Of a DNA stretch of 64,000 bases, positions 53,953 through 62,241 are shown piece after piece. Positions within the stretch are counted from its first letter, which is position 1. Each line of letters opens with the position of its first letter. A program made the position numbers and the translations under genes. Under the pieces are notes generated by a model that saw only the letters and a program-made list of their open reading frames with translations, did not search any database and was not told where the DNA came from. Source of the stretch: Myxococcales bacterium (lineage in GTDB: Bacteria > Myxococcota > B64-G9); assembly GCA_012798435.1 (NCBI GenBank), contig JAAZNF010000107.1, positions 1-64,000 of the forward strand. The letters are read 5' to 3'.

Positions 53953-55290
53953 ATGCGAAAATCGTCTTGTGTTCCATTCCTCCGGGTCGCCGCCCTGTGC
54001 GTGGTCCTCCTCCCGGCGCTCCCTCGGCAAGCCGCGGCCCACCGTTGCGAGCTGTGGGCCTGGCACAAGGACGGGCATTCCGCCGCGCTGTTTTGCAGCG
54101 AGGCCTGCCGCGATTGCCCGGGGCGGGAGGAGATCCTCATCCTCGGGCGCATGGCCCAGGGCAAGCCGGCCATCGTGTGGCAGGCCGGGGACGCCGCCGA
54201 GACGCCGGATGCGGCGGCGCGCGAGCAGCTCCTCCAGCGCTCGGCCGAGTGGCTGCGAAGCATTGGATTCGATGTCGCCAAGGAACTGCCGCTTTTTACC
54301 GGCGGGCACCCGGCGCCGCAGGGCACCTTTCCCGGCCCGGCCTGGAAGAGCGTGACGCTGGTCGGCCCCCCCGAGCCGCTGCCTGCGAGACAAGGACAGG
54401 ATCCGGCAGGAAGATGCGAAGAAGGAGTCCCCGGGCCGGGGAGCCACGCCGCCATCCCGCTACCCGAGGGCGCAAGCCAGCCACCCGGCCTGTTGCAGAT
54501 CACGGCGCTCGACTGCGCGAGGAACGAGAACCGGGAAAACGCGCTCGCCATCCGGGCGGACTTCATTCCCTTCGGCGAGGCGGCGGCGATCTGGCTGGGG
54601 CAGCTCTCGTGGCTGTGGGACACCGGGCACGTCTCGGCCGAGATCGAGGTCGCCGTGTCGCCCCAGGGCCGCGCGCTCCTCTTGCGCCGTACTGCAGACT
54701 CGGCGGGCCGCTCACGCGAGCTTTTTTTCCCCCTGTGGCTACCGGGATCGGGCCGGGAACCGCCGCCCAGGGCGAAAGACCTCTACCCCGGCGCCTACGC
54801 GGGCACCTTCGGCGAGAACGTCGTCGAGTACCTGGCCATGCCGCGGGTGCTGGCGGGGGCCTTCCTGGGCAGCATCGGCGGCGGCGGCGACTCCTATGGC
54901 TGGACATCCTTCCACTTCTCCATCCTGGAGTACCTCACTTTCGGCGAGCCGCGCCACTGGCTCGATCTGGGCGTGGGCGGGGCGCTGTTCTCCTACCAGC
55001 GCTCCTCGCGCGGGACGGGCTGGTCGATCCTGGGCTTCGGCCCGGCGCTCAAGGTGGGAAGGTTGCTCGTCGAGGGGCGGGTGGAGGCCCTGTCCTTCAA
55101 GGAGGGAGAGTGGCGGCCCGGCCTGCGCGCACGCGTGGTCCTCCCCCTGGCCACGCCACGCGAGGTCGGCATGTGGGGCATCTTCATCCCCAGTCCCATG
55201 ATCGGCTACGACGTATGGTACCGCTCCGACCTCAGCCACGACGAGACGCACTTCTGGTGGGGCGTGACCTGGCTGGGGAACTACTTTTAG
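53953..55290 (+). CDS. Secreted/envelope protein of unknown function
   Basis: 445 residues with a signal peptide (MRKSSCVPFLRVAALCVVLLP...AAA). The first third has a Cys-containing region HRCELWAWHKDGHSAALFCS followed by CRDCPGREEILILGR; the C-terminal third is rich in Gly and aromatic residues in alternating pattern (VGGALFSYQRSSRGTGWSIL, ending HFWWGVTWLGNYF), suggesting beta-strands and perhaps an outer-membrane barrel end. No family is recognised. A TTGACT at 53916-53921 with TAGGGT 18 bases later would put the start of transcription at the ATG. Confidence 0.75.
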   Translation: MRKSSCVPFLRVAALCVVLLPALPRQAAAHRCELWAWHKDGHSAALFCSEACRDCPGREEILILGRMAQGKPAIVWQAGDAAETPDAAAREQLLQRSAEWLRSIGFDVAKELPLFTGGHPAPQGTFPGPAWKSVTLVGPPEPLPARQGQDPAGRCEEGVPGPGSHAAIPLPEGASQPPGLLQITALDCARNENRENALAIRADFIPFGEAAAIWLGQLSWLWDTGHVSAEIEVAVSPQGRALLLRRTADSAGRSRELFFPLWLPGSGREPPPRAKDLYPGAYAGTFGENVVEYLAMPRVLAGAFLGSIGGGGDSYGWTSFHFSILEYLTFGEPRHWLDLGVGGALFSYQRSSRGTGWSILGFGPALKVGRLLVEGRVEALSFKEGEWRPGLRARVVLPLATPREVGMWGIFIPSPMIGYDVWYRSDLSHDETHFWWGVTWLGNYF

Positions 55291-55453: not shown

Positions 55454-56803
55454 ATGCGAGAATGGATCGAGCGGATCTTCCAGCTCACCGCGCGCGGCAC
55501 CAGCCTGCGCGCCGAGGCGCGCGGCGGCGTGGTGACCTTCCTCACCATGAGCTACATCATCTTCGTCCAGCCGATGGTGCTGCAGGCGGCGGGGATGGAC
55601 TTCGGGGCGGTGATGGTGGCCACCTGCCTGGCCTCGGCCTTCGCCACCCTGGTCATGGCCTTCGGGGCCAACTACCCGGTGGCCCTGGCCCCGTGCATGG
55701 GCGAAAACTTCTTCTTCGTCAGCGTGTGCGCCGGCGCGGTGACCGGCGCCCCCGTGCCCTGGCCGGCGGCGCTGGCGGCGGTGCTGGCCTCCGGCGTGCT
55801 GTTTCTACTGCTCTCGGCCTTCCGCTTCCGCGAGGCCATCCTGGAGAAGCTGCCGCTCTCGCTGAAACACGCCATCCCCGCCGGCATCGGCCTGTTCATC
55901 GCCTTCATCGGGCTGCAGCAGGGCGGCCTGGTGCGGGCCGCGCCGGGTTCGATGGTGGGCCTGGGGGATCTGGGCTCGGGCCCGGCGCTGCTCACGCTGG
56001 GCGGGCTGGTCTTCACCGGCGTTCTGCTTTCGCTGCGGATCCCGGGGGCCTTCCTGTGGGGCCTGCTGGCCTCCACCGCGGCCGCGCTGCCGTTGGGGCT
56101 CGCCGAATGGCACGGCCTCTTCAGCGCCCCGCCCAGCCTGGCGCCGGTGCTCTTCAAGCTGGACCTGGCGAGCCTTCTGGACGCGGCCATGATCCCGGTG
56201 GTGGTGATCTTCTTGTTCATGGTCCTCTTCGACACCGTGGGCACCCTGGTGGGCGTGGGACAGCAGGCGGGCCTGATGAAGGACGGCCAGCTCGAGCGGG
56301 CCGGGCGGGCGCTGTTCTCCGACGCCGCGGGCACCACCGCGGGCGCGCTGCTCGGCACCTCCACCGTGTCGGCCTACATCGAGAGCGCGGCCGGCGTGGC
56401 GGCGGGGGCGCGCACCGGGCTGGCCTCGGTGGTCACCGCGGCGCTCTTCTTGCTGGCCATGTTCTGCTTTCCGCTCGTGCAGATGGTGGGCGGCGGGGTG
56501 GTCATCGGCGGCGTCCCCTACCACCCCATCACCGCGCCGGTGCTCATCCTGGTCGGCTCCATGATGGTGCGCATGATCGCGCACATCGGCTGGGAGGAGC
56601 CGTCCGAGGCCATCCCGGCCTTCCTGGTGATCGCCGGCATCCCGCTCACCTACTCCATCGCCGACGGGCTGGCCCTCGGTTTCGTGGCCTACCCGCTCCT
56701 CAAACTCCTCTCCGGCAAGGGGCGGCAGGTGCCGGGGCTGGTGTACCTCATGGCGGCCCTGCTGTGCGGCGTGTTCGTGATGAAGGCGCTGCTTCGGGCC
56801 TGA
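55454..56803 (+). CDS. NCS2-family purine permease, AzgA type
   Basis: 449 residues with 12-14 membrane helices. AzgA-specific stretches are clear: VTFLTMSYIIFVQPMVLQAA at the N-terminus, PVALAPCMGENFFFV, PAGIGLFIAFIGLQQGGLV, MVLFDTVGTLVGVGQQAGLM and LLGTSTVSAYIESAAGVAAG. Transports hypoxanthine, guanine or adenine with protons. ATG at 55454. No purine-metabolism gene lies next to it. Confidence 0.92.
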   Translation: MREWIERIFQLTARGTSLRAEARGGVVTFLTMSYIIFVQPMVLQAAGMDFGAVMVATCLASAFATLVMAFGANYPVALAPCMGENFFFVSVCAGAVTGAPVPWPAALAAVLASGVLFLLLSAFRFREAILEKLPLSLKHAIPAGIGLFIAFIGLQQGGLVRAAPGSMVGLGDLGSGPALLTLGGLVFTGVLLSLRIPGAFLWGLLASTAAALPLGLAEWHGLFSAPPSLAPVLFKLDLASLLDAAMIPVVVIFLFMVLFDTVGTLVGVGQQAGLMKDGQLERAGRALFSDAAGTTAGALLGTSTVSAYIESAAGVAAGARTGLASVVTAALFLLAMFCFPLVQMVGGGVVIGGVPYHPITAPVLILVGSMMVRMIAHIGWEEPSEAIPAFLVIAGIPLTYSIADGLALGFVAYPLLKLLSGKGRQVPGLVYLMAALLCGVFVMKALLRA

Positions 56804-56866: not shown

Positions 56867-57685
56867 ATGTGGCTTTTCAACCCACTGCAGCTGAAGGACT
56901 TCGTGACCCTGGGCAACGTCCTGGGCGGCATCGGCTCGATGATCGCCTCGCTCGAGGGCAGCATCGACTGGGCCTGCTACCTCATGCTCATCGCCTGGGT
57001 GTTCGACTCGCTGGACGGCCCGGTGGCCCGCGCCACGGGCGGCGGCAACCGCTTCGGCGAGGTGTTCGACAACGTGGCCGACCTGGTGGCCTACTCGCTG
57101 GCGCCGGGGATGCTGCTCTTTCTGGTGTTCCGCCTGCCGTTCGAGGCCGGGGGCGCCGGCTGGCCTGCGTGGGCCGCGGGGCTGCTGGCGGCCTTCCCCA
57201 TCTTCGTGGGTTGCGTGCGCTTCTCGCGCAACGACGTCATGGAGCTCACCTTCCCCGAGTTCCACCTGGGCCTGCCGCGCACCGTGTACGCGCTCTACCT
57301 GGGGACCCTGTTCTGCAGCCATCTCTACCGCGGGCCGTGGATGAGCGATCCCCAGTCCACGGCCAACGCCTGGCTCTTCGGCGCGGGCGCCGTGTTCGTG
57401 ACCGCGGTGAGCGCGCTGACGCTGACGGTTCGCCCCTATCACGCCAAGCCCAAGAAGCCCACCTTCATGGTGCTCTTCTCGACGGTGTGGTTCATCGCCA
57501 CCTCGGCGTTGAGCTTCGTGGCGGCGGCCATCTTGTCCATGCCGCGGCTGGTGTTCGACGTGTTCGCGGTGAACTTCACCCTGTACACCTGGTTCGGCTG
57601 GAGCATCATCCCCCGCGCCACCCGCGCCGACATCCGCGCCTACTGCCGCCGCATGGGCGAGCGCTGGAAGGCCGAGATGGGTTGA
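56867..57685 (+). CDS. CDP-alcohol phosphatidyltransferase (PssA-like)
   Basis: 272-residue membrane enzyme with the complete CDP-OH-P motif: D(x2)DG(x2)AR in VFDSLDGPVARATGGG and G(x3)D(x3)D in GEVFDNVADLVAY. The N-terminal NPLQLKDFVTLGNVLGGIGS and the length fit the type II phosphatidylserine synthase branch, but phosphatidyl transfer to another alcohol is possible. AGGAGG ribosome site before the ATG. The next gene is a paralogue lacking the motif, starting 3 bases later. Confidence 0.85.
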   Translation: MWLFNPLQLKDFVTLGNVLGGIGSMIASLEGSIDWACYLMLIAWVFDSLDGPVARATGGGNRFGEVFDNVADLVAYSLAPGMLLFLVFRLPFEAGGAGWPAWAAGLLAAFPIFVGCVRFSRNDVMELTFPEFHLGLPRTVYALYLGTLFCSHLYRGPWMSDPQSTANAWLFGAGAVFVTAVSALTLTVRPYHAKPKKPTFMVLFSTVWFIATSALSFVAAAILSMPRLVFDVFAVNFTLYTWFGWSIIPRATRADIRAYCRRMGERWKAEMG

Positions 57686-57688
57686 GCC

Positions 57689-58495
57689 ATGACCATCCAG
57701 CCGCTGAAAACCCGCGACCTCCTGGCGCTCTCCGTGCTGGCGGGCGGCATCGTCTCCGTGGCGGCCGCGGCCGAGGGCCTGCGCTCGCTGGCCGCGCTGG
57801 CGGTGCTCGCCGCCGCCCTGCTCGACGTGTCGCTCGCCCCGCGGCTCGCGGCCGGGGCGCGCTGGAGCCGCTTCAACAAGGTGTTGCTCGACATCTGCCG
57901 TCAGGTGCCGTTTGGTCTCGCGCCGTCCTTCGCGGTGTACCTCGCCTTCCGCGCGGGAGCGGACGCGGGAGGGCCCGGCTGGGGCATCGCCCCCGCCGCC
58001 ATCCTGGCCTCGCTCCCCTGCGCCCTGGGCTGCGTGCGTTTCACCCGGGATGACATCCTGGTGCCACGCCTTGCTGGCGTGCGGTTCGGGCCGTCCCAGG
58101 CGATGGTGGCCCTGGCCATGATGGGGCTCGTCCACTCGCACCTCTTCGCGGGCCGGCCCTTCATCGATGCGCGCGCCCCGTACGCCCCGTTTGTCTTCGC
58201 CGCCGGGGCGCTGCTGCTCCTCTGGCTGTCGCTGCAAAACCTCTCGCTGGCCCCGGGGCCCGAGCGGGCCGGGCGGCGCGCCTGGGACTTTGCCGGTCTG
58301 CTCGTCGTGGCCGCGGCGGCGGGGGGCTTCTCGGAAGACGCGGCGGCGGCGGCGGACGTGCTCGCGGCCGGTCTAACGCTGGCCCTCCCCATGCGAAGCT
58401 TCCTGCTTCCGCCGGACACCCGCCGCGCCGCCCGCGAGGCCAGCGAACGCTTCCGCAAAGAGTGGCGCGAGCAGCAGGGGCCGAAGTCCGCCTGA
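57689..58495 (+). CDS. Catalytically dead paralogue of the adjacent phosphatidyltransferase
   Basis: 268-residue membrane protein that aligns along its length with its neighbour: LDVSLAPRLAAGARWSRFNK corresponds to FDSLDGPVARATGGGNRFGE, and LGCVRFTRDDILVPRLAGVR to VGCVRFSRNDVMELTFPEFH. Three of the four catalytic Asp residues (positions 2, 3 and 4 of the motif) and the DG-AR core are lost. Membrane segments are kept. The gene starts 3 bases after the active one, so the two proteins probably form a heterodimer with a regulatory subunit; this is inference. Confidence 0.75.
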   Translation: MTIQPLKTRDLLALSVLAGGIVSVAAAAEGLRSLAALAVLAAALLDVSLAPRLAAGARWSRFNKVLLDICRQVPFGLAPSFAVYLAFRAGADAGGPGWGIAPAAILASLPCALGCVRFTRDDILVPRLAGVRFGPSQAMVALAMMGLVHSHLFAGRPFIDARAPYAPFVFAAGALLLLWLSLQNLSLAPGPERAGRRAWDFAGLLVVAAAAGGFSEDAAAAADVLAAGLTLALPMRSFLLPPDTRRAAREASERFRKEWREQQGPKSA

Positions 58496-60115: not shown

Positions 60116-61309
60116 CTAGGCTGTTTTTACATCGGGATCGCGATAGCGCTGCGCGATGTCTGCCACCTCGGACCGGATGTCGAGGAACGCGGATACGCAG
60201 CGCGGATCGAAATGGGTGCCCGCATCTTTTTGCAGGATCGAGAGCGCCTCGTCCATGCCCATGGCCCCCTTGTACACGCGCTTGCTGGACAGCGCATCGA
60301 ACACGTCGGCCACCGCCACGATGCGCCCGACCTCGGGGATATCCTCGCCCCGCAGGCGTCGCGGGTAGCCGGTGCCGTCCCATTTCTCGTGGTGGGTGAG
60401 CGCCACCACCTCCGAGAGCTTCAGGATCTCGGAGTCCGAGCCCGACAGGATGCGGGACCCGATCTCCGGGTGCTGCTGCATGACCTCCCGCTCTTCCGGG
60501 GTGAGCCGGCCGGGCTTCAGCAGGATGGCGTCGGGGATGCCGATCTTTCCCACGTCGTGCATGGGGGAGGCGTACAGCACCTGCTCCACCCGGCGCGCGT
60601 CGTAGCCCAGGCGGCGAGCCAGGGCGGCGGAGTAGTGGCTCATGCGCCGCACGTGCATGGCCGTGTCGTGATCGCGATACTCGGCGGCCACCGACAGGCG
60701 GTAGATGGTGTCCAGGTGCACGCGCTTGAGCTCCTGGGTGAGCTCGGCGTTGCGCACCGCCACCGCCGCCTGGGACGCCAGCGAGCGCACCAGGTCCTCG
60801 AAGCGCTCGTGGAAAGGGATGACCTGGCCGTGCTGTGTGGCGTTGATGAGCTGGAGCACGCCCAGCACCCGCTCTTCGGCATCCAGCATGGGCACGGCCA
60901 GCAGGGAGACGGTGCGGTAGTCGTTGCGGCGGTCGAAGTCGGGGTTGAAGCCGAAGGGAACGCCCGCGGGCAGCCGGTACACGTCGGCCAGGTTCAGGTT
61001 GCGCCGGGTGGAGGCCACGAAGCCGGCGATGCTCCGCTCGTTGATGGGCAGGGTGAACGAGGAGAACAGCGCCCGCTCCCCCGCCTCGCCCAGGCGCTGC
61101 CGCAGGGTGTCGTTCTGGGAGACCGCGAAGCGCAGCCGCTCGCCCTCGCGCAGGTACAGACTGCCGGCGTCGGCCGCGGTGAGGGCGCGGGCCTCCCGCA
61201 CGATCAGATCGAGCAGCTGATCCAGCTGGTGAACGCTGGTGAGTGCGATGCCGATGCGGTTGAGCTTGAGCACCTCGTCGCGCAGGCATTCCACTTCGCT
61301 TTGCGGCAT
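60116..61309 (-). CDS. GAF/HD-GYP cyclic di-GMP phosphodiesterase
   Basis: 397 residues: N-terminal GAF sensor (about 15-185, VREARALTAADAGSLYLREG), then an HD-GYP domain with SPMHDVGKIGIPDAILLKPG and HHEKWDGTGYPRRLRGEDIP, followed by VADVFDALSSKRVYK. All metal ligands of the family are visible, so it should hydrolyse c-di-GMP to pGpG/GMP. The pilB product in this window has an MshEN domain of the c-di-GMP-binding kind, which would give a route from this enzyme to pili. ATG at 61309 preferred over a GTG ten codons earlier. Confidence 0.93.
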   Translation of the reverse strand: MPQSEVECLRDEVLKLNRIGIALTSVHQLDQLLDLIVREARALTAADAGSLYLREGERLRFAVSQNDTLRQRLGEAGERALFSSFTLPINERSIAGFVASTRRNLNLADVYRLPAGVPFGFNPDFDRRNDYRTVSLLAVPMLDAEERVLGVLQLINATQHGQVIPFHERFEDLVRSLASQAAVAVRNAELTQELKRVHLDTIYRLSVAAEYRDHDTAMHVRRMSHYSAALARRLGYDARRVEQVLYASPMHDVGKIGIPDAILLKPGRLTPEEREVMQQHPEIGSRILSGSDSEILKLSEVVALTHHEKWDGTGYPRRLRGEDIPEVGRIVAVADVFDALSSKRVYKGAMGMDEALSILQKDAGTHFDPRCVSAFLDIRSEVADIAQRYRDPDVKTA

Positions 61310-61335
61310 GGCCACCTCGACGTCCGCCCATCCTA

Positions 61336-62241
61336 TCACAAACCCGCGGCGACGGGCCCGGGGTGGGTGATCTCGCGGCGCAGCAGGCGCAAGGAGCGGG
61401 ACAGTCCCCAGGCGTTGAGCCCGGCCGCCAGGGCGCGGGCCTCGACACGCGCCGCCTCCTCGGCCACGATGGGGCTGGGCTCGATGCGCAGGCTGCCGTC
61501 GTCGCTGGGCCGCTCCACCCGGGGCAGGGCGCGGATGCGGTCGCTGACCAAGATGGCCATCCGCCTCCCCTCCATACGCCGGGTCAGCTCAGACAACCCC
61601 TGACGGAAGGGCGGCGCCAGGCGGGCGCGCACCGCCGGGGGGGAGTGTTCGGGCTCGACCAGGGCCTGGAGCGAGCGCAACACCGGGTTCTGGATCTCGG
61701 GCGGGTCGGAGATCAGAAACGCCAGCACCGCCGCCGGCGCTCGCATGCGGGCGAAGCGCCGACCGGGCGGCGGGGCGTTCACCGCCAGGAAGTCATCCAG
61801 GTCCCGCGCCTCGGCGGCCTGCAGGTACCCGGTGGCGCGGCCCGGGGCATAGGCGTCGAAGCGCACCTGCACCGACTCTCCCTCCCCGAGGGTGCGGCGC
61901 AGCGCGGCGAAGTACTCCTCGCCATCGTCCACCGCGGCGATGTCGATGCGTAGCGGTTGGAGCAAGAGCTGCTCCACCTCACGCGCGCGGGCGCCATCCA
62001 GGCCCGGCAACAGCACCCGCAGGCCGCGCTGGCCCACGGCCTCGGCCGAGAATTCTCCCACGCCCTCCGAGCGCAACCGCTCGCGCACCGCCTCCAGCAT
62101 GGCCCGCTGGCTGCCGGCGCGGCCCTCGACCTCGAACAGCAACCCGGCACCGCCACCGCGGATGAACAGGGGGTCGGCCTCGGGCCGACAGGCGCCGAGC
62201 ATGACGGCGAGCAGCGCAGCGGCGACGCGGAGCATGGCCAT
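61336..62241 (-). CDS. Lipoprotein with SecD-type periplasmic domains
   Basis: 301 residues. ATG at 62241 (GGAGGG 6 bases upstream) starts a lipoprotein signal, lipobox LGAC. The mature part follows the SecD periplasmic domain: an RNRID-like block AMLEAVRERLRSEGVGEFSA-EAVGQRGLRVLLPGLD-GARAREVEQLL near residues 45-100, and later RRMAILVSDRIRALPRVERP with SPIVAEEAARVEARALAAGL, the region just before the SecD membrane bundle. The membrane helices are absent. Role unknown; a detached SecD accessory is one reading. Confidence 0.7.
   Translation of the reverse strand: MAMLRVAAALLAVMLGACRPEADPLFIRGGGAGLLFEVEGRAGSQRAMLEAVRERLRSEGVGEFSAEAVGQRGLRVLLPGLDGARAREVEQLLLQPLRIDIAAVDDGEEYFAALRRTLGEGESVQVRFDAYAPGRATGYLQAAEARDLDDFLAVNAPPPGRRFARMRAPAAVLAFLISDPPEIQNPVLRSLQALVEPEHSPPAVRARLAPPFRQGLSELTRRMEGRRMAILVSDRIRALPRVERPSDDGSLRIEPSPIVAEEAARVEARALAAGLNAWGLSRSLRLLRREITHPGPVAAGL

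What the first reader, a model, noticed from the sequence alone, without database searches (positions are those of the whole stretch)
56867..58495. Active phosphatidyltransferase beside a dead paralogue
The second protein aligns with the first along most of its length but has lost three of four catalytic Asp residues and the DG-AR core. The genes are 3 bases apart. Pairs of active and inactive CDP-alcohol phosphatidyltransferases are not a standard arrangement; since the family is dimeric, a regulatory pseudoenzyme is plausible.
Basis: partly seen in the sequence, partly recalled or inferred. Interest (0 to 1): 0.6.

Follow-up and report, generated by a model that had tools for sequence, protein, structure and literature searches.

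The report
Dead twin of a lipid-making enzyme
One bacterium of the Myxococcota carries, directly behind a gene for a lipid-headgroup enzyme, a second intact gene for a diverged copy of that enzyme which has lost its catalytic centre but kept the part that pairs two copies together; it may act as a non-catalytic partner, but the pair was found in this one genome only.

Summary
Window 56867-57685 (+) encodes an intact CDP-alcohol phosphatidyltransferase (CAP) of phosphatidylserine-synthase fold (P1). Three bases downstream and in the same frame, 57689-58495 encodes a full-length homologue (P2; 33% identity over 172 aa, E=1e-22). P2 keeps only one of the eight defining motif residues (D46) and lost Asp 2, 3 and 4, DG and AR.

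P2 is not a decaying pseudogene. It is intact and has 91% GC at third codon positions; neutral drift to the same divergence left 0 of 300 simulated frames intact when indels were allowed. It folds in silico as MjPSS. Its loss is selective: helix 2 with the motif is 14% identical to the active orthologues (P1: 74%), whereas helix 4 is 53% (P1: 56%). Helix 4 is a dimer-interface helix carrying the anion-binding arginines (R101/R104 in MjPSS).

Best reading (inferred): a pseudoenzyme that heterodimerises with P1. No interaction was shown, and a fused-pair model was uninformative.

The pair was found in no other genome of its class (nine held) or phylum (195 searched); three genomes with P1 orthologues lack P2 beside them. 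Selection across species therefore cannot be tested. P1 is not the housekeeping PssA, and its product is unknown.

The parts
56867..57685 (+). P1: CDP-alcohol phosphatidyltransferase with intact motif DSLDGPVAR(x8)GEVFDNVAD; PSS-like, substrate unknown
   Evidence: (PF01066 49.2 bits, cut-off 22)
57005..57082 (+). P1 catalytic motif D47...D72 (all four Asp, DG, AR, G)
57683..57691 (+). TGA-GCC-ATG: stop of P1, 3-base gap, start of P2, same frame; translational coupling likely (inferred)
57689..58495 (+). P2: full-length CAP-fold paralogue without catalytic motif (pseudoenzyme)
57824..57901 (+). P2 degenerate motif region (residues 46-71: D46 kept; L49, A50, L53, A54, N63, L67, R71 in place of D, G, A, R, G, D, D)
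57965..58057 (+). P2 retained region (residues 93-123): GGPGW loop and helix 4 with R117 and R120, aligned to MjPSS R101/R104; helix 4 is as alike to active orthologues as P1's is

Best explanation
P2 arose by duplication within the P1 subfamily of phosphatidylserine-synthase-fold CDP-alcohol phosphatidyltransferases, lost its metal- and CDP-binding centre, and is kept as a non-catalytic partner. Shown: homology, loss of the motif, intact frame, coding-like base composition, and better retention of the helix-3/4 loop and helix 4 than of the rest. Inferred: P1 and P2 are translated together and form a heterodimer through helices 1, 3 and 4. In it P2 supplies the second-protomer elements (N-terminal amphipathic segment, anion-binding arginines) that such enzymes need, while only P1 turns over CDP-activated substrate. 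P2 would thereby stabilise P1, tune its activity, or make it half-sited.
For: Homology over the full length; motif lost. Neutral simulation to the same identity: 0/300 intact with indels, 0-9/300 with substitutions only; drift would also pull third-position GC to 0.65-0.82 against 0.914 observed. Predicted fold pLDDT 82.9, pTM 0.81; best PDB matches are the four MjPSS chains, TM 0.69-0.71 on target length. Helix-specific identity to active orthologues, P2 versus P1: motif helix 0.14 v 0.74, helix 4 0.53 v 0.56. Family-invariant residues kept 12/17 in residues 94-124 (P1 numbering) against 31/95 elsewhere, p=0.0055 for a window chosen afterwards; 0.043 after scanning all windows. In MjPSS, helices 1, 3, 4 and the other protomer's N-terminal helix make the dimer, R101/R104 lie in an anion network reaching that helix, R101E abolishes activity, and removing the N-terminal seven residues leaves about 8% (PMC8633023). 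Three-base spacing in the same frame.
Against: No P2 orthologue was found, so selection is judged from one sequence. The retention signal is modest after correction (p=0.043). P1 and P2 are paralogues, so the retained helix could reflect fold, or a P2 homodimer, rather than pairing with P1. The fused P1-P2 model had pLDDT of about 25-50 for the P2 half and says nothing on pairing. The P2 monomer model leans on an alignment of active homologues. P1 orthologues in three relatives have no P2 beside them, so it is not needed by the enzyme in general.
Confidence: 0.5

Rival explanations
1. P2 is a free-standing neofunctionalised membrane protein: it keeps the CAP fold and homodimer interface but works apart from P1, for example as a lipid- or anion-binding protein, or as partner of another CAP such as the paralogue on contig 108.
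For: End branch of 2.83 changes per site and odd composition; helix 4 would also be kept for a P2 homodimer; other CAP genes exist in the genome.
Against: Three-base linkage to P1 and best BLASTP hits within P1's own subfamily.
Confidence: 0.27
2. Recent duplicate under relaxed selection, on its way to loss, still open by luck in a GC-rich genome.
For: Present in one genome only; absent at the same place in relatives; long branch.
Against: Under neutral drift to this divergence the frame stays intact in 0/300 (with indels) or 0-9/300 runs, and codon-position GC would flatten, but it has not; loss is uneven along the protein.
Confidence: 0.14
3. P2 is still an enzyme with a changed centre and different chemistry.
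For: One motif Asp, a neighbouring Asp and both anion-site arginines remain.
Against: The equivalents of three of the four metal-binding Asp of MjPSS (D44, D62, D66) are gone, and mutating any of these strongly reduces or abolishes activity there (PMC8633023); no Pfam family is recognised.
Confidence: 0.06
4. Assembly or binning artefact.
For: The genome is in 129 contigs and P2 was found in no other genome searched.
Against: The pair lies inside a 79-kb contig with an unbroken frame, and the same GAF-HD neighbour (68% identity) stands beside the P1 orthologue in a relative.
Confidence: 0.02

Closest known systems
MjPSS, phosphatidylserine synthase of Methanocaldococcus jannaschii (7pow, 7b1k; PMC8633023)
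   Same: Best solved relative of P1 by sequence and of the P2 model by fold; eight-helix dimer, same beta elements, R101/R104 equivalents present in P1 and P2
   Different: P1 is under the pssA and archaetidylserine synthase cut-offs; P2 lacks the catalytic motif
CDP-alcohol phosphatidyltransferase family (PF01066)
   Same: P1 is a member above the cut-off; P2 shares descent and predicted fold
   Different: P2 has no Pfam match and lost the defining motif
Dead-paralogue partners such as trypanosome prozyme of AdoMet decarboxylase (PMC5201418, abstract read)
   Same: Active enzyme plus catalytically dead paralogue; P2 would work like this if the heterodimer holds
   Different: Different enzyme family; complex and activation shown experimentally there, not here

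Membership tests
CDP-alcohol phosphatidyltransferase (PF01066), P1 | Motif DxxDGxxAR(x8)GxxxDxxxD and Pfam cut-off | tested here: met
   Motif intact; 49.2 bits against 22
CDP-alcohol phosphatidyltransferase (PF01066), P2 | Same motif and Pfam cut-off | tested here: not met
   One of eight motif residues kept; no Pfam match up to E=1
CAP/PSS fold, P2 | PSS-type helical fold | tested here: met
   Model pLDDT 82.9, top PDB matches MjPSS; caveat: alignment made of active homologues
Bacterial phosphatidylserine synthase (TIGR00473), P1 | Equivalog cut-off 107 bits | tested here: not met
   66.1 bits; another gene on contig 28 scores 138.6
Archaetidylserine synthase (NF038087, TIGR04217), P1 | Cut-offs 240 and 200 bits | tested here: not met
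   79.2 and 69.9 bits
Pseudoenzyme, P2 | Homologue of an enzyme lacking essential catalytic residues | tested here: met
Pseudoenzyme, P2 | Gene maintained as a functional protein | tested here: inconclusive
   Intact frame, coding base composition and neutral simulation in favour; no orthologues for a selection test
Regulatory heterodimer with P1 | Physical association and effect on P1 activity | not testable with these tools
   Fused-pair model uninformative

The most novel reading that the evidence does not exclude
A CDP-alcohol phosphatidyltransferase that works as an obligate heterodimer of a catalytic and a dead subunit, giving a half-site membrane enzyme in which the dead subunit supplies the trans elements of the active site. 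I found no report of this for the family.
Probability: 0.25. Interest if true: 0.6.

Novelty: new variant of a known kind. Interest (0 to 1): 0.4.

Why it matters
The solved CDP-alcohol phosphatidyltransferases discussed in the MjPSS paper are homodimers, and that paper suggests that activity depends on dimerisation through residues shared across the interface. A natural active/dead pair would separate the two roles and let one ask directly what the second protomer contributes. The significance is limited by its occurrence in a single genome and by the unknown substrate of P1.

Tried and rejected
P2 orthologues: genome-contig scan with P2 (none) and viral scan with an alignment of the active family plus P2 (none); own class of nine genomes, 58 relatives and 195 genomes of the phylum: only P1-like active homologues. 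Profile search of 193 genomes of the phylum: the only adjacent pair among the listed matches is this one (the list is cut). Tree: P2 falls with the P1 subfamily (94/90) on a very long branch; P1+P2 as sisters not rejected (p-AU 0.28), so duplication before or after the split of the genera cannot be told. Fused P1-P2 structure as a stand-in for the heterodimer: uninformative. I considered that the relatives' long open frames around the CAP (514 and 464 aa) were fusions with a nucleotidyltransferase; the upstream parts did not resemble one and look like GC-rich read-through. A first Fisher test on motif residues alone was not significant (1/8 kept against 32/77, p=0.14): eight positions are too few. 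Literature: no paper holding both 'CDP-alcohol phosphatidyltransferase' and 'pseudoenzyme'; two wider searches gave nothing on this family.

Full report
Observation. Two same-strand ORFs lie at 56867-57685 (P1, 272 aa) and 57689-58495 (P2, 268 aa). P1 ends TGA, then GCC, then P2 starts ATG, in the same frame. P1 carries the full CDP-alcohol phosphatidyltransferase motif and passes the Pfam cut-off (49.2 against 22 bits). P2 has no Pfam match even at E=1 and only a weak NCBIfam match to archaetidylserine synthase (2e-5, far under cut-off). The two are homologous over their length: BLASTP 33% over 172 aa, 1e-22; genome search with P2 hits P1 over residues 4-264; P2 aligns end to end with the P1 orthologues of three relatives at 27-29%.

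Motif. In the ungapped register the eight defining residues D47, D50, G51, A54, R55, G64, D68, D72 of P1 are D, L, A, L, A, N, L, R in P2. In MjPSS these Asp residues bind the two metals, and any mutation of the motif residues significantly reduces or abolishes activity (PMC8633023). P2 is therefore very unlikely to do CAP chemistry. All 35 other homologues collected kept the motif.

Not decay. P2 has GC of 0.765/0.56/0.914 by codon position, like its neighbours. Starting from P1 and mutating neutrally to 31% identity, 0 of 300 frames stayed intact with indels at 5% of substitutions, and 0-9 of 300 with substitutions alone; third-position GC fell to 0.65-0.82. The simulation is simple (one ancestor, HKY-like, fixed equilibrium GC), but the margin is wide.

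What was kept. Identity of P2 to the three active orthologues, against identity of P1 to them, by predicted helix: motif helix 0.14 against 0.74; helix 3 region 0.30 against 0.61; loop GGxGW 0.62 against 0.90; helix 4 0.53 against 0.56; helices 7-8 about 0.2 against 0.43. Of residues invariant in the four active proteins, P2 keeps 12 of 17 in residues 94-124 and 31 of 95 elsewhere (p=0.0055 for this window; 0.043 after scanning all windows). This stretch includes R118 and R121 of P1 (R117 and R120 of P2), which a profile alignment places on MjPSS R101 and R104 (I infer a three-residue offset between the chain numbering and the paper's, from the fit of the named residues). In MjPSS helices 1, 3, 4 and the N-terminal horizontal helix of the other protomer form the dimer; R101 and R104 sit in an anion network reaching that helix; R101E abolishes activity and removing the N-terminal seven residues leaves about 8%. 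P2 has thus lost its own catalytic centre but kept the part that contacts a partner. That is the basis for the heterodimer proposal, which remains inference.

Fold. AlphaFold2 with 11 rows gives P2 pLDDT 82.9 and pTM 0.81, with strands between helices 4/5 and 6/7 as described for MjPSS. Foldseek's four significant PDB matches are all MjPSS chains (E 8e-5 to 6e-4, TM about 0.7 on the target). The alignment is dominated by active homologues, so the model tests compatibility rather than proving the fold. The P1-P2 fusion (TGA read as Trp) folded only in the P1 half.

Distribution. All nine genomes held for the class, 58 relatives and 195 genomes of the phylum contain no other P2, nor does the GTDB contig collection by peptide pattern. 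P1 orthologues (50-56% identity) occur in three other genera. In G003 the CAP gene runs tail to tail into a GAF-HD gene whose orthologue (68%) also lies near the pair in the window (60116-61339), so the place of P2 is empty there. In G005 the CAP gene is followed by a nucleotidyltransferase gene. In G007 only about 340 bases remain before the contig ends, and they hold an unrelated open frame. The tree puts P2 with the P1 subfamily on a branch of 2.83 changes per site; its exact origin is unresolved. Named relatives are Deltaproteobacteria/Myxococcales metagenome bins.

What P1 makes. It is not the housekeeping enzyme: the genome has a TIGR00473 PssA on contig 28 (138.6 bits) and a PgsA on contig 124. 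P1 is below the cut-offs for phosphatidylserine and archaetidylserine synthases. In G005 its orthologue stands between myo-inositol-1-phosphate synthase and a MobA-like nucleotidyltransferase, whose relative in the window's own genome matches the cytidylyltransferase part of the inositol-phosphate model; in G007 the inositol-phosphate synthase is on the same contig. An inositol-related acceptor or CDP-inositol donor is a lead only; in the window's own genome those genes lie on contig 91 beside another CAP.

Verdict. A real, unusual active/dead tandem pair; pseudoenzyme status well supported, partner role plausible and untested, single occurrence. Dead paralogues that partner active enzymes are known in other families (PMC5201418, abstract); I found none described for this one. 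The literature library is open-access only, so absence there is weak evidence.

Noticed in passing
L010:2209-4741 (G005 contig 289): P1 orthologue sits in an apparent operon between myo-inositol-1-phosphate synthase and a MobA-like nucleotidyltransferase; suggests an inositol-linked substrate for this CAP subfamily.
   Followed up: partly
L072:4614-9197 (own genome contig 91): Inositol-phosphate synthase, a PIP-synthase-like CAP and a cytidylyltransferase (62% to the one in G005) cluster together, with a different CAP in the place that the P1 orthologue takes in G005.
   Followed up: partly
L101 (G005 contig 260, 7584-8915): Two CAP genes of different subfamilies, both with intact motifs, lie convergently next to each other.
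   Followed up: no
window 55454-56803: Xanthine/uracil-type permease gene 63 bases upstream of P1 on the same strand; possible shared transcript.
   Followed up: no
window 53953-55290: 445-aa ORF with coding-like composition and no Pfam match.
   Followed up: no
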